NCBI RefSeq assembly: GCF_030297155.1
Contig: NZ_AP028067.1
Coordinates: 62,001-126,000, forward strand
Reading direction: 5' to 3'
Length of the DNA: 64,000 nucleotides
DNA from: Vibrio sp. FE10
GTDB taxonomy: Bacteria; Pseudomonadota; Gammaproteobacteria; Enterobacterales; Vibrionaceae
This document shows positions 1-4,322 of this stretch, piece after piece. The notes below the pieces were generated by a model. It was not told where the DNA came from. It saw only the letters and a program-made list of their open reading frames with translations, and made no database searches. The stretch's first letter is position 1; the number at the start of each line of letters is the position of its first letter. The position numbers and the translations under genes are program-made.

Positions 1-1682
1 TCGATATTGATGCCGTCTGGCCAAAGAGGATGACGGCCTTCGTTTTCAAGCTTTTTTTCTGCGAGCCTTTTGACCCTAGGATGAATTGTGAAGATTATGC
101 GATTAATTGATGCGAGGAGGTCGGAGTAATTGTTGGAAAAATGCTGTTCGTCTAAATGATAAACCTTTGAGTCCTTGATTGATTCTCGATAACTTAAAAG
201 GCACCAAATGTCTTCGACATTCTCTATTATCACTTGGTTTTCACAGTTGAAGCAGTTGTGAATGTCCGAGCACGCTAGGTGATCAACAACAAAGTCCTTT
301 GGATTAAAGTGATTTCTTCTCCGATATTTATCGACATGTGCAGAGAACGCATTCTTACACCCAGTGCCAAGTACGGTTTTTTGACCATTAGACTCAGAGT
401 ATTTGTTTAAAAACTCTTCATACGGGAGAACCTCAATACCTAGTTCTTTCTTTGCATGTTCTTTTGCTTGATTAATATCAGAGCACTTTGCTACTCCTTC
501 TATTGTGTATGTCGCTGCCAGAAGCTGTTTTTCATTTTCTACAGTATTGCCCGATGAATAGTGTTTATTAAATGTGCGAGGAGTGTTTCCCAATAAAAGA
601 GATGTCTCTACTGCGTTGCCAGTCTTTGCTAAATATCGATAGCTACCACTAGCTCGGAATCTCGATGCTGTTGGTCTTAGAGGTTTATTGTCATAGGTCA
701 TCAGAGAAAATGTTTGCTGCAGCCAATTTGAGAATGTTTGAATATGACCTTGTTGCAATGGTGCTGCTTTTCCTGCTTTGCATTGATATAGCAAGTGGGA
801 ATCGGTTGATATAGACGTGCTAAGTTTAAGAAGTTGCTCAAAAAAACGTAGAGCTATCTTGGGGACGTGGTAAGTGCCATTGTCACCAATTGAAACTGAT
901 ACAAACTTATTTGCTCTAGGTTTCAATACACTTTGCTCAAACCAAGCTCCGCCTTCATAAATTTTTTCTTTTGGCTTGGTCATGTTTAGTAGCACGGTTG
1001 TGTTTCCCCATGTGTAATACGCTAGTAAGAAATAAGCTGCGCTAAAACATTTTGTTATTGGAGAGGTAATATCATGGGTAAACCCTTGGTATATAAAGGT
1101 TCCAATACGTTTATTGGTTGTAGCTTGAAGGAATTTTTCGGGTTCATCTAAGATTTGTTTTGATAGCTGATTAAAAAAACGATAAATGACTTTTATAAGA
1201 ACATTTAACTCTTGATCGGAATAACTTTCTGTTGGGTTTATTTCAGAACGAAATAAGGTATAAGGCGAGAACCAAGTTGAGCTTGGGTTCCCCAGTCTTT
1301 CTAAACATTTTTTTACACATGAAATCTGCTTTCTAGCGGAGTTCACATTCATTTTTTCAATTCTAACTTGTTCTATTAAATGCCTTTCTAAAGACTCAAC
1401 TGCTTCCTGGCTCTCAGGTCGAAGGTTCTTTGAATCACAATAACGAACAAAGAGAGCAAAGTCTCGAAGGTAGCTTTGTTTGGTAAGATCTGAATATTCA
1501 TTGGTATCATTAAAAAATCGATACCAACGTAAAACATCATCATCACGATTTGCTGGCCTTGCTGATTCAAAGCTCCTTTTAAAGGCTACACCATGATAAA
1601 AAAATCGAGTGAAATCGTATGTAAAATACTGATCAATACCGGTGCGCATTCTTATGGTCAAAATAGGGGGAGAATAGCTCAT
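1..1682 (-). CDS. recombinase-fold protein, second gene of integrase module (partial, runs off left edge)
   Basis: An uninterrupted reading frame of 560 codons starts with ATG at 1682 and is still open at base 1, so the C-terminus is missing. The ATG overlaps the TGA of the upstream recombinase gene (ATGA), which implies translational coupling. Residues ~330-376 (RPTASRFRASG ... LLLGNTPRTFNKHYSSGN) resemble the catalytic end of a tyrosine recombinase: Arg present, HxLR replaced by TASRFR, and a candidate Tyr near residue 375. Residues ~470-485 carry Cys clusters (CSDIHNCFNC) that could bind zinc. Large recombinase-fold partners follow a smaller integrase in Tn554-like and in strand-biased circularizing elements; assignment to either is inference. 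Base composition is more AT-rich than the chromosome to the right. Confidence 0.75.
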   Translation of the reverse strand, partial: MSYSPPILTIRMRTGIDQYFTYDFTRFFYHGVAFKRSFESARPANRDDDVLRWYRFFNDTNEYSDLTKQSYLRDFALFVRYCDSKNLRPESQEAVESLERHLIEQVRIEKMNVNSARKQISCVKKCLERLGNPSSTWFSPYTLFRSEINPTESYSDQELNVLIKVIYRFFNQLSKQILDEPEKFLQATTNKRIGTFIYQGFTHDITSPITKCFSAAYFLLAYYTWGNTTVLLNMTKPKEKIYEGGAWFEQSVLKPRANKFVSVSIGDNGTYHVPKIALRFFEQLLKLSTSISTDSHLLYQCKAGKAAPLQQGHIQTFSNWLQQTFSLMTYDNKPLRPTASRFRASGSYRYLAKTGNAVETSLLLGNTPRTFNKHYSSGNTVENEKQLLAATYTIEGVAKCSDINQAKEHAKKELGIEVLPYEEFLNKYSESNGQKTVLGTGCKNAFSAHVDKYRRRNHFNPKDFVVDHLACSDIHNCFNCENQVIIENVEDIWCLLSYRESIKDSKVYHLDEQHFSNNYSDLLASINRIIFTIHPRVKRLAEKKLENEGRHPLWPDGINI

Positions 1683-2969: not shown

Positions 2970-4322
2970 CTACATGGTAACAAACTCTTCGCTGCCCGTT
3001 GGGTGGATAGCCACAACAGAGTCGAAATCTGCTTTGGTTGCGCCCATCTTCATTGCAACGCCGAAGCCTTGAATCATTTCATCAACAGTGAAACCGATGC
3101 CGTGTAGGCCGACGACTGTCTCTTCTTCGCCTGCACATACTAGCTTCATCTTACAAGGTTGACGGTGTTGAGTGACTGCTGTGTACATTGCAGTAAAACC
3201 AGACGTGTAGACCTTGATGTTGTCTTTGCCGTATTGCTCTTCAGCTTCTTGAGTCGTTAGACCAATTGTGCCGATAGGTGGGTGGCTGAATACAACAGTA
3301 GGAACGAGCGCGTAGTCCATCTTCGCGTTTGTTTGGCCGTTGAATAGGCGCTCAGAAAGCTGACGACCTGCTTTAACAGCAACAGGTGTTAGCTCGATGC
3401 CGCCTTCCATGATGTCGCCAACACAGTAAATGCCAGGAACGTTTGTTGCTTGGAATTCGTCTACTTTGATGTAGCCACGGTCGTTTGTTGCAACGCCAGT
3501 TGATGCTAGGTTGATAGCGTCAGTTGCTGGGTGACGGCCGATAGCCCAAATTAGGTGATCAACGTTTTGAGTGTTGCCATTCTCAAGGTGCAGAGTCAGC
3601 GTACCGTCTGCTTCTTTCACGACTTCTTTAGGAACAGAGTGCGTGTGAAGTGTTGGGCCTTCCGCTTCCATTACTTCAACCAATGTCTCAACGATCATTG
3701 GGTCGAAGCTACGTAGTGGTGACTCTTTACGACAGAACAGGTGTGTTTCTGTGCCAAGTGCACTTAGTACGCCTGCGATTTCTACTGCGATGTAGCCCGC
3801 GCCGATAACAGCAACACGTTTAGGTTGCTCCATCAGGTCGAAGAAACCGTTTGAGTCGATACCGTGCTCTGCGCCAGGGATGTTTGGAATGGTTGGACGA
3901 CCACCTACCGCGATCAGGATGTGATCTGCAGTGTAGTGTTCACCGTTAACTTCAACGGTCTTCTCATCGACAAACTTAGCAAAGCCTTTGATTACGTTTA
4001 TTTTGTTGTTACCAAGAACGCGATCGTAAGACTGGTGAATACGACCAATGTACGCTTGACGGTTTTCAACCAGTTTGCCCCAGTTGAAGCCTTTTACGTC
4101 AACGTCGAAGCCGTAGTCTTTTGAGTATAGGTTGATCGCTTCAGCAACTTGAGCACCGTGCCACATAACTTTTTTAGGAACACAACCAACGTTTACACAA
4201 GTACCACCAAGGTCTTGAGCTTCGATAAGTGCAACTTTTGCACCGTGCATTGCTGCGCGGTTAGCTGATGCGATGCCGCCTGAACCGCCGCCGATACAGA
4301 TGTAATCAAAATGAGTCGCCAT
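2970..4322 (-). CDS. gor: glutathione-disulfide reductase
   Basis: This cytosolic flavoenzyme reduces glutathione disulfide with NADPH and keeps the thiol pool reduced. The N-terminal FAD motif is GGGSGG (residues 11-16), the redox-active disulfide is C42/C47 in GGTCVNVGCVPKK, a second GxGxxA nucleotide motif lies near residue 171 with an Arg downstream (FCRKE) as expected for NADPH, and the C-terminal catalytic His-Glu pair is H440/E445. An upstream in-frame ATG at 4334 exists, but GGAG inside it is spaced correctly as the Shine-Dalgarno for ATG 4322, giving 450 residues as usual. The protein ends VTM, while E. coli Gor ends VTMR; the element integrated immediately downstream may have altered the last codon. 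Confidence 0.96.
   Translation of the reverse strand: MATHFDYICIGGGSGGIASANRAAMHGAKVALIEAQDLGGTCVNVGCVPKKVMWHGAQVAEAINLYSKDYGFDVDVKGFNWGKLVENRQAYIGRIHQSYDRVLGNNKINVIKGFAKFVDEKTVEVNGEHYTADHILIAVGGRPTIPNIPGAEHGIDSNGFFDLMEQPKRVAVIGAGYIAVEIAGVLSALGTETHLFCRKESPLRSFDPMIVETLVEVMEAEGPTLHTHSVPKEVVKEADGTLTLHLENGNTQNVDHLIWAIGRHPATDAINLASTGVATNDRGYIKVDEFQATNVPGIYCVGDIMEGGIELTPVAVKAGRQLSERLFNGQTNAKMDYALVPTVVFSHPPIGTIGLTTQEAEEQYGKDNIKVYTSGFTAMYTAVTQHRQPCKMKLVCAGEEETVVGLHGIGFTVDEMIQGFGVAMKMGATKADFDSVVAIHPTGSEEFVTM

What the first reader, a model, noticed from the sequence alone, without database searches (positions are those of the whole stretch)
1..2972. Integrase end of an unseen genomic island at the gor 3' hotspot
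Seen: a tyrosine recombinase gene, an overlapping recombinase-fold gene running off the window, and repeats at the gor junction, all more AT-rich than the chromosome. Known, from memory: VSP-I of V. cholerae, which carries anti-phage systems (dncV/capV and avcD), lies directly beside gor. Inference: this strain has a different or related island in the same hotspot, and its cargo, possibly defence genes, starts just left of base 1. The gene layout resembles the integrase modules of strand-biased circularizing elements or Tn554-like elements.
Basis: partly seen in the sequence, partly recalled or inferred. Interest (0 to 1): 0.75.

Follow-up and report, generated by a model that had tools for sequence, protein, structure and literature searches.

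The report
Four-gene mobile island beside gor
The window begins inside a 12.7 kb mobile DNA island that sits at the end of the gor gene of a marine Vibrio, carries four recombination genes like those of a recently described class of mobile elements, and has relatives at the same spot in many bacteria that often carry anti-phage defence genes, including one nearly identical to a gene of the cholera island VSP-I.

Summary
Observation confirmed and extended: the island was read to its other end. It is a 12.73 kb insertion at the last codons of gor (C1:52246 to window 2972), absent from a same-species genome and three relatives with clean empty sites. Its gor-side end carries four intact genes in the order of the SE core (strand-biased circularizing integrative elements), intA-tfp-intB-srap; profile matches to SE-6945 are decisive for three, weak for Srap. 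Relatives keep the module and swap cargo. The family lies beside gor in 32 of 42 testable named loci, eleven genera. Of 28 such islands examined, 13 carry named defence genes. The window's own cargo does not: an alkyl sulfatase among transposase remnants. One gor island holds a CD-NTase with 5 substitutions and a 4-residue gap against PDB 5go3 (V. cholerae DncV, species recalled), in VSP-I-like order, so VSP-I is probably a member (inferred; its integrase sequences were not obtained). A leader hairpin pairs with the intA start codon here and in 17 of 26 relatives. Strand bias was not testable.

The parts
2970..4334 (-). gor (glutathione reductase), target gene; its last codons are the attachment site. 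Empty relatives such as G018 end V-T-M-R-stop, here V-T-M-stop with the stop codon supplied by the element
2973..2978 (+). attL core CATGGT, shared with the other end (C1:52240-52245)
2923..2964 (+). two direct copies of TTTTCCAGACT (2923-2933, 2954-2964), candidate recombinase arm sites; at the far end the same motif forms a dyad (C1:52361-52386)
2879..2922 (-). leader hairpin on mRNA entering from gor; its 3' arm contains the intA AUG
   Evidence: stem conserved in relatives with compensatory changes
1679..2881 (-). intA, 400 aa tyrosine recombinase with R219, H332, R335, H365, Y374
1..1682 (-). tfp, 562 aa tyrosine-recombinase-fold protein lacking Arg I and both His; continues 7 bases left of the window to C1:61994

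Best explanation
The feature is the integrase end of an integrative element of the SE type (strand-biased circularizing integrative element), 12.73 kb long, inserted at the last codons of gor. Shown: borders, empty site, four intact core genes (intA 400 aa, tfp 562, intB 704, srap 145) in SE order on one strand, termini shared with relatives, cargo exchange between relatives, preference for gor. Inferred mechanism: IntA and IntB (both with the full R-H-R-H-Y set), with Tfp as a catalytically crippled DNA-binding subunit and Srap as auxiliary factor, bind the TTTTCCAGACT sites and the CATGGT core. They join the two ends into a circular copy, which inserts at the 3' end of gor, where the element supplies a new stop codon so that gor stays open. 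Insertion puts intA directly downstream of gor on the same strand. A hairpin that forms on any transcript starting upstream of it, such as read-through from gor, pairs with the intA start, which should keep read-through from switching on the recombinases. Cargo inside srap is exchanged, often for anti-phage systems; here it has been overrun by transposases around an alkyl sulfatase gene. Transfer between cells would need a carrier; related modules sit on large plasmids, and the three plasmid junctions read resemble the gor end.
For: Empty site in same-species G186 (left flank 97% identical) and in G018, G087, G027: left flank stops at L002:10245-10246, right flank resumes at window 2968. Homology to SE-6945 by profile: IntA 99.9% E=3e-37, Tfp 99.3% E=1e-20 over 495 columns, IntB 100% E=1e-38; three mismatched pairs score 0.8-2.6%. 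Same order and same 4-base intA-tfp overlap as SE-6945 on pSEA1. Catalytic residues (rows include some genomes twice): IntA R219 and R335 72 of 72, H332, H365 and Y374 71 of 72; IntB R345, R498, H522, Y531 51 of 51, H495 50 of 51; Tfp has Asn for Arg I in 76 of 76. Tfp model resembles Cre/Xer recombinases (low-confidence model). Closest relatives keep the module (G116 Tfp 93%, IntB 90%; G095 93%, 75%) with other cargo. gor within 400 bp of intA in 32 of 42 named loci. Leader: 35 double-change cells against 11.0 +/- 2.8 in shuffles in clade 2, 9 against 3.0 +/- 1.3 in clade 1.
Against: Srap matches SE-6945 Srap only weakly (69.8%, E=4e-5; no tblastn hit). The SE hallmark of imperfect terminal inverted repeats around a 6-bp spacer did not stand out (43 of 128 matches against 34 +/- 8.4, reached by 320 of 2000 permutations). 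Strand bias, circle formation and absence of an empty site after recombination cannot be seen in sequence. The arm-site role of the repeats and the regulatory role of the hairpin are inferences: in clade 1 the AUG is fully paired in only 7 of 14 leaders, and one of five covariation measures there does not exceed shuffles (312 of 500).
Confidence: 0.88

Rival explanations
1. A GInt (ginABCD island), the sister class with three recombinase-like genes and a small fourth gene.
For: Four-gene operon at one end, swapped cargo, site-specific insertion, as described for GInts (PMC5385486, part 1 of 6 of the text).
Against: In GInts the recombinase lacking an arginine is the third gene (GinC), here the crippled one is the second; IntA, Tfp and IntB match SE-6945 strongly by profile, Srap weakly, and the SE authors report that SE and GInt proteins fall into separate clusters (PMC10214605, section read).
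Confidence: 0.05
2. An ordinary excising genomic island (IME/ICE-like) whose single integrase is IntA, the other genes being passengers.
For: IntA alone matches a known integrase family; the borders look like those of any integrase island.
Against: The four genes keep order and orientation across two clades whose Tfp are about 31% identical; IntB keeps its catalytic residues in 50-51 of 51 rows; no relaxase or excisionase among the five cargo ORFs given to Pfam.
Confidence: 0.05
3. A fixed chromosomal feature or a dead remnant.
For: Cargo is littered with broken transposases; some relatives show decay (intA split over two frames in G116, an insert inside tfp in G037) or only end scars at gor (L051, L053, L054).
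Against: All four core ORFs and both ends are intact here; absent from the same-species genome and from most Vibrio (Tfp match in 50 of 196 at E<=1e-3).
Confidence: 0.05

Closest known systems
SE-6945 and SE-6283 (strand-biased circularizing integrative elements, Vibrio alfacsensis; PMC9345347, PMC10214605)
   Same: intA-tfp-intB-srap order, one strand, one end; RHRY in IntA and IntB, not in Tfp; site preference; size range; lower G+C than host
   Different: 23-35% identity to SE-6945 in the aligned stretches, none for Srap, though SE-6945 and SE-6283 share only 20-27% by the paper's figures; target is the gor 3' end rather than those reported (bcp, yjjN terminator, insJ, yaaA promoter); cargo of relatives is often defence; leader hairpin at the intA start
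Gor islands of G116, V. ostreicida (G095), V. nereis (G181), V. aestuarianus (G023), G174, G062
   Same: Same module (Tfp 76-93%), gor-side core CATGGT, gor-side TTTTCCAGA repeats, far-end dyad found in five (not in the fetched stretch of G023)
   Different: Cargo: TIR plus caspase-like (G116), IetAS (G095, G181, G174), CBASS (G023, G062); own cargo is alkyl sulfatase plus transposase remnants
VSP-I of Vibrio cholerae (VC0175-VC0185)
   Same: 14 kb, carried between VC0174 and VC0186 (PMC4045137, passages); CBASS, VC0185 called a transposase, VC0176 a helix-turn-helix regulator (PMC12409362, passages); a VSP-I variant in Vibrio sp. RC341 has three consecutive ORFs annotated phage integrase, transposase, phage integrase (PMC2889950, passages). 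That VC0186 is gor and that VC0178-VC0181 are the CBASS genes is recalled
   Different: VC0182-VC0185 were not obtained for comparison; VSP-I carries defence cargo that the window's island lacks
Tn554 and GInts
   Same: Several tyrosine recombinases plus a small protein; site specificity
   Different: Tn554 lacks a Tfp counterpart; GInts have the crippled recombinase third and distinct protein clusters (PMC10214605, PMC5385486)

Membership tests
SE | Four core genes intA, tfp, intB, srap in this order on one strand at one end | tested here: met
   reference layout
SE | Sequence homology of IntA, Tfp, IntB to SE proteins | tested here: met
   profile comparison with SE-6945, E=3e-37, 1e-20, 1e-38
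SE | Sequence homology of Srap | tested here: inconclusive
   69.8%, E=4e-5 against SE-6945; 98.9% against the A. sobria locus L135, which is itself not an established SE
SE | RHRY in IntA and IntB, absent from Tfp | tested here: met
   Tfp lacks Arg I and both His but keeps Arg II and Tyr in 76 of 76, matched by hand from motif spacing
SE | Insertion into a few selected sites, split attB recognisable against an empty genome | tested here: met
SE | Imperfect inverted repeats C and C' with a 6-bp spacer in attS | tested here: inconclusive
   the hexamer differs between the two ends in 2 of 8 islands, as a 6-bp footprint would allow
SE | Strand-biased circle formation without an empty donor site | not testable with these tools
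   needs attS amplicon sequencing
GInt | ginABCD order with the crippled recombinase third | tested here: not met
   crippled recombinase is second
GInt | Homology to GinA-GinD | not tested
   no GInt protein was fetched
Tn554 | Three-gene tnpABC module without a Tfp counterpart | tested here: not met
   tfp present
VSP-I-type gor island | Integrase module homologous to VC0182-VC0185 | not tested
   VSP-I integrase sequences not obtained; indirect evidence
VSP-I-type gor island | CBASS (capV-dncV-cap2-cap3) cargo | tested here: not met
   absent in the window's island; present in G023 and G062

The most novel reading that the evidence does not exclude
gor is the main home of a whole SE clade across Gammaproteobacteria that works as a defence-exchange platform: a fixed four-protein recombination module with its own translational lock against read-through from gor, and a cargo slot filled in turn by CBASS, IetAS, restriction systems and others. 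VSP-I, a hallmark island of seventh-pandemic V. cholerae, is a member, its little-studied genes VC0182-VC0185 being srap, intB, tfp and intA, so it would spread by copy-out circularization rather than by classical excision.
Probability: 0.7. Interest if true: 0.78.

Novelty: new member of a known kind. Interest (0 to 1): 0.6.

Why it matters
It gives a concrete att site, termini and core genes with which gor islands can be found and bounded in any genome, and makes the origin of VSP-I directly testable. In eight searches of the held paper library (listings seen) no listed paper that holds an SE term also holds VSP-I or CBASS. The two SE papers have no hit for VSP, CBASS, defense or glutathione, and 'gor' in them is only part of author names. 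Most subscription papers are not in that library.

Tried and rejected
The species of G062 is unknown; it may be V. cholerae or a near relative. A V. cholerae plasmid, pNDM-116-14, does carry a clade-2 module with a shortened intA next to an IS21 element. Viral contigs: 34 stretches matched a pattern, none encoded a relative. Inverted repeats with a 6-bp spacer: inconclusive. A model of Tfp from 11 sequences was poor (pLDDT 64) and is used only for the fold class. IntA has no PDB relative by sequence at E<=1e-3. No Rfam family in L002:9800-20000; no terminator-like match and one promoter-like match, on the other strand, in window 2600-4500. The tRNAs in L002 lie 9.5 kb from the left end, so the island is not a tRNA insertion. 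The gor label is not a single clade in the IntA tree (7 changes); before it 3 short rows and 13 more were left out: 9 duplicates and, by oversight, both copies of G071 and of G122, the latter at gor. The defence count rests on 28 islands of my choosing and on none to five proteins per island (10, 30, the rest by identity, or PDB), so it is a lower bound and not a random sample; G037 was not scanned. Its control, 9 chromosomal proteins and the own alkyl sulfatase, gave one weak hit (7e-8). Enrichment over other genomic islands is not shown.
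Full report
What is there. The window is G000:C1:62001-126000 of a 6.0 Mb, three-contig assembly whose closest named relatives by this module are Vibrio. Window 1679-2881 (-) encodes a 400 aa tyrosine recombinase and 1-1682 (-) the body of a 562 aa protein that ends 7 bases left of the window. To the left follow a 704 aa protein (C1:59868-61982, -) and a 145 aa protein (C1:59459-59896, -), overlapping by 29 bases. All four frames are open. G+C is 35-42% in the recombinase part of the window and 41-51% from 3001 to 10000.

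Borders. Against the same-species genome G186 (kinship as labelled) the left flank aligns at 97% up to L002:10245 and the right flank resumes at window 2968. G018, G087 and G027 give the same break points within one base. Both ends carry the hexamer CATGGT (C1:52240-52245 and window 2973-2978), so the insertion is 12,733 bp counting one copy. The empty site reads CATCGT in G186 and CATGGT in G018. In G018 gor ends V-T-M-R-stop; here the element's last bases supply the stop after V-T-M (read). The gor-side end has two direct TTTTCCAGACT motifs; the far end has the same motif as a 26-bp dyad 115 bp inside the border. The dyad, one mismatch per half allowed, was found in 8 of 12 gor stretches searched (own and seven relatives); the four without it are L048, whose far end probably lies outside the fetched stretch, and L051, L053 and L054, which have no core genes. 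In those 8 the hexamer differs between the two ends in 2.

Cargo. Between C1:52390 and 59458 lie an alkyl sulfatase gene (C1:54398-56365) and remnants of transposases: DDE, IS110-type and Y2 families by Pfam and a below-cut-off rve domain. None of 23 cargo proteins of four relatives has a tblastn match there at E<=0.01.

Relatives. In 196 genomes of the genus the second gene has a match at E<=1e-3 in 50. Comparing coordinates, the module lies beside gor in 10 of 10 genomes of the close clade (47-100% Tfp identity) and in at least 9 of the about-31% clade; G043, G088 and G143 carry it elsewhere. In GTDB contigs, 50 named loci were found. Of 42 with more than 600 bp before intA, 32 have a gor match within 400 bp (in one, L099, at only 40% identity), one (Proteus) lies 7 kb away and 9 have none. 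Genera with gor next door: Vibrio, Photobacterium, Pseudoalteromonas, Alteromonas, Shewanella, Aeromonas, Rheinheimera, Idiomarina, Motilimonas, Arsukibacterium and Buttiauxella. In the IntA tree (62 rows) SE-6945 and two distant loci stand apart from the other 59 rows (support 100/99); of these 59, 42 are at gor, 8 elsewhere and 9 undetermined, and the gor label is not one clade. The best reading is a long-held gor preference with several moves away.

Plasmid copies. A module 74.5% identical in Tfp sits on V. parahaemolyticus pHLA (typed non-mobilizable), and 48% identical ones on Shewanella and Alteromonas plasmids typed as conjugative. Their junctions before intA read GTTACCATGTAGATC, GTACTATGTAGATC and GATACTATGTAGATC, close to the occupied gor end, GTTACCATGTAGATC. 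Plasmids with gor-like sites are thus candidate carriers between cells; this is inference.

Family. Profiles of our IntA, Tfp, IntB and Srap families against SE-6945 from pSEA1 give 99.9%, 99.3%, 100% and 69.8%, with three mismatched pairs at 0.8-2.6% as control. Order and intA-tfp overlap match SE-6945. IntA and IntB keep R-H-R-H-Y almost without exception. Tfp has Asn for the first Arg in 76 of 76 and Asn for the last His in 74 of 76, but keeps the second Arg and the Tyr in 76 of 76 (the correspondence was made by spacing, and some genomes count twice). A low-confidence Tfp model matches Cre (E=7.6e-5) and Xer recombinases first. From PMC10214605 (abstract, passages, sections) and PMC9345347 (abstract, sections, passages): knock-outs of intA, intB and srap abolish the SE circle junction, a tfp knock-out could not be made, SEs form circles without leaving an empty site, and they place a 6-bp footprint. 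The 6-bp spacer with inverted repeats was not clear here, and strand bias cannot be read from sequence. I therefore file it as an SE by core genes and order, with the functional hallmark untested.

Defence cargo. PADLOC scans gave CBASS in G023 and IetAS in G174, the latter by 84-99.7% identity also in G095, G181 and V. owensii; type III RM in P. luteoviolacea, type I RM in Rheinheimera and type IIG RM in a MAG; type IIG RM in V. tetraodonis, a protein PADLOC names dCTPase in an uncultured Shewanella and Ppl in Buttiauxella. With the CD-NTase islands of G062 and G016 (35% identical cyclase) this makes 13 of 28 gor islands examined. Five with candidate or weaker hits are not counted (A. media PDC-S06, S. 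gelidimarina PDC-M01B, G116 TIR and caspase, V. litoralis LmuB-like, Arsukibacterium DrmB-like). The other ten (own, L092, L098, L101, L103, L104, L115, L116, L119, L121) gave nothing strong. A small helix-turn-helix gene, a roughly 174 aa protein and a helicase recur next to different defence systems: the G174 proteins match in 10, 13 and 13 other loci of the 55 searched, one genome counting twice.

VSP-I. The CD-NTase of the G062 gor island aligns over 432 residues to PDB 5go3 with 5 substitutions and a four-residue gap (951 bits). That this chain is V. cholerae DncV is recalled; another matched entry is named VC0179-like protein. Its patatin neighbour is less close to the solved CapV (418 bits). 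In G062 the order patatin, CD-NTase, E1-E2, JAB, srap, intB, tfp, intA, gor equals VSP-I if VC0182-VC0185 are the core genes: VSP-I spans VC0175-VC0185 with VC0185 called a transposase and VC0176 a helix-turn-helix regulator (PMC12409362, passages), and a variant has three adjacent integrase/transposase ORFs (PMC2889950, passages). This is an inference, not a test.

Leader hairpin. intA lies directly downstream of gor on the same strand and no terminator-like match separates them. On such a transcript the 12-bp stem CAUACUAGCCUC/GAGGCUAGUAUG contains the intA AUG (z = -5.3). In 14 leaders of the close clade (13 distinct) the conserved part of the stem pairs in 89.4% of cells, with 9 double changes against 3.0 +/- 1.3 in shuffles; of five measures one, the number of pair types, is not above shuffles. 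In 13 leaders of the other clade a longer structure covers the AGG and the AUG, with 35 double changes against 11.0 +/- 2.8 and no shuffle of 500 reaching it on any measure. Folded singly, the AUG is fully paired in 7 of 14 and 11 of 13 leaders; in the rest of the close clade the stem ends at or just before it. A DNA role in recombination is not excluded, but changing stems that keep pairing favour a folded strand. The likely purpose is to keep gor read-through from producing recombinase.

Verdict.

Noticed in passing
L051 (before 19141), L053 (before 19064), L054 (before 19153), gor-oriented coordinates: Scars at gor: element-type end sequences (in L051 and L053 also intA leader remnants) without any core gene match, suggesting past occupation and loss of the module.
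   Followed up: partly
L044:6326-7842: G116 gor island carries a TIR-domain protein next to a caspase-like protein just inside srap; PADLOC gives only partial matches, so this may be an undescribed defence pair.
   Followed up: no
L047:4809-7781 (similarly starting genes in L046 and L052): Three-gene cluster at the far end of several gor islands (204, 441 and 346 aa); the 441 and 346 aa proteins have no PADLOC match; function unknown.
   Followed up: no
L047:7848-10161 and 10-13 other loci: Recurrent accessory set (helix-turn-helix, about 174 aa protein, about 457 aa helicase) across gor islands with different defence systems.
   Followed up: partly
L002:8520-9773: A stand-alone NqrB/RnfD-like gene (judged by eye) lies on the chromosome left of the island; it is missing at this place in G027.
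   Followed up: no
L002:88-693: Cluster of five tRNA genes (Arg, His, Pro, His, Pro) with internal repeats.
   Followed up: no
L102 (Proteus terrae): Module lies 7 kb from gor, possibly with a second insertion between them.
   Followed up: no
L172:13306-19680 (plasmid pHLA): Plasmid-borne relative carries an S8 peptidase next to an ATP-binding protein, and a helix-turn-helix gene next to an adenosine deaminase, by the record's annotation.
   Followed up: no
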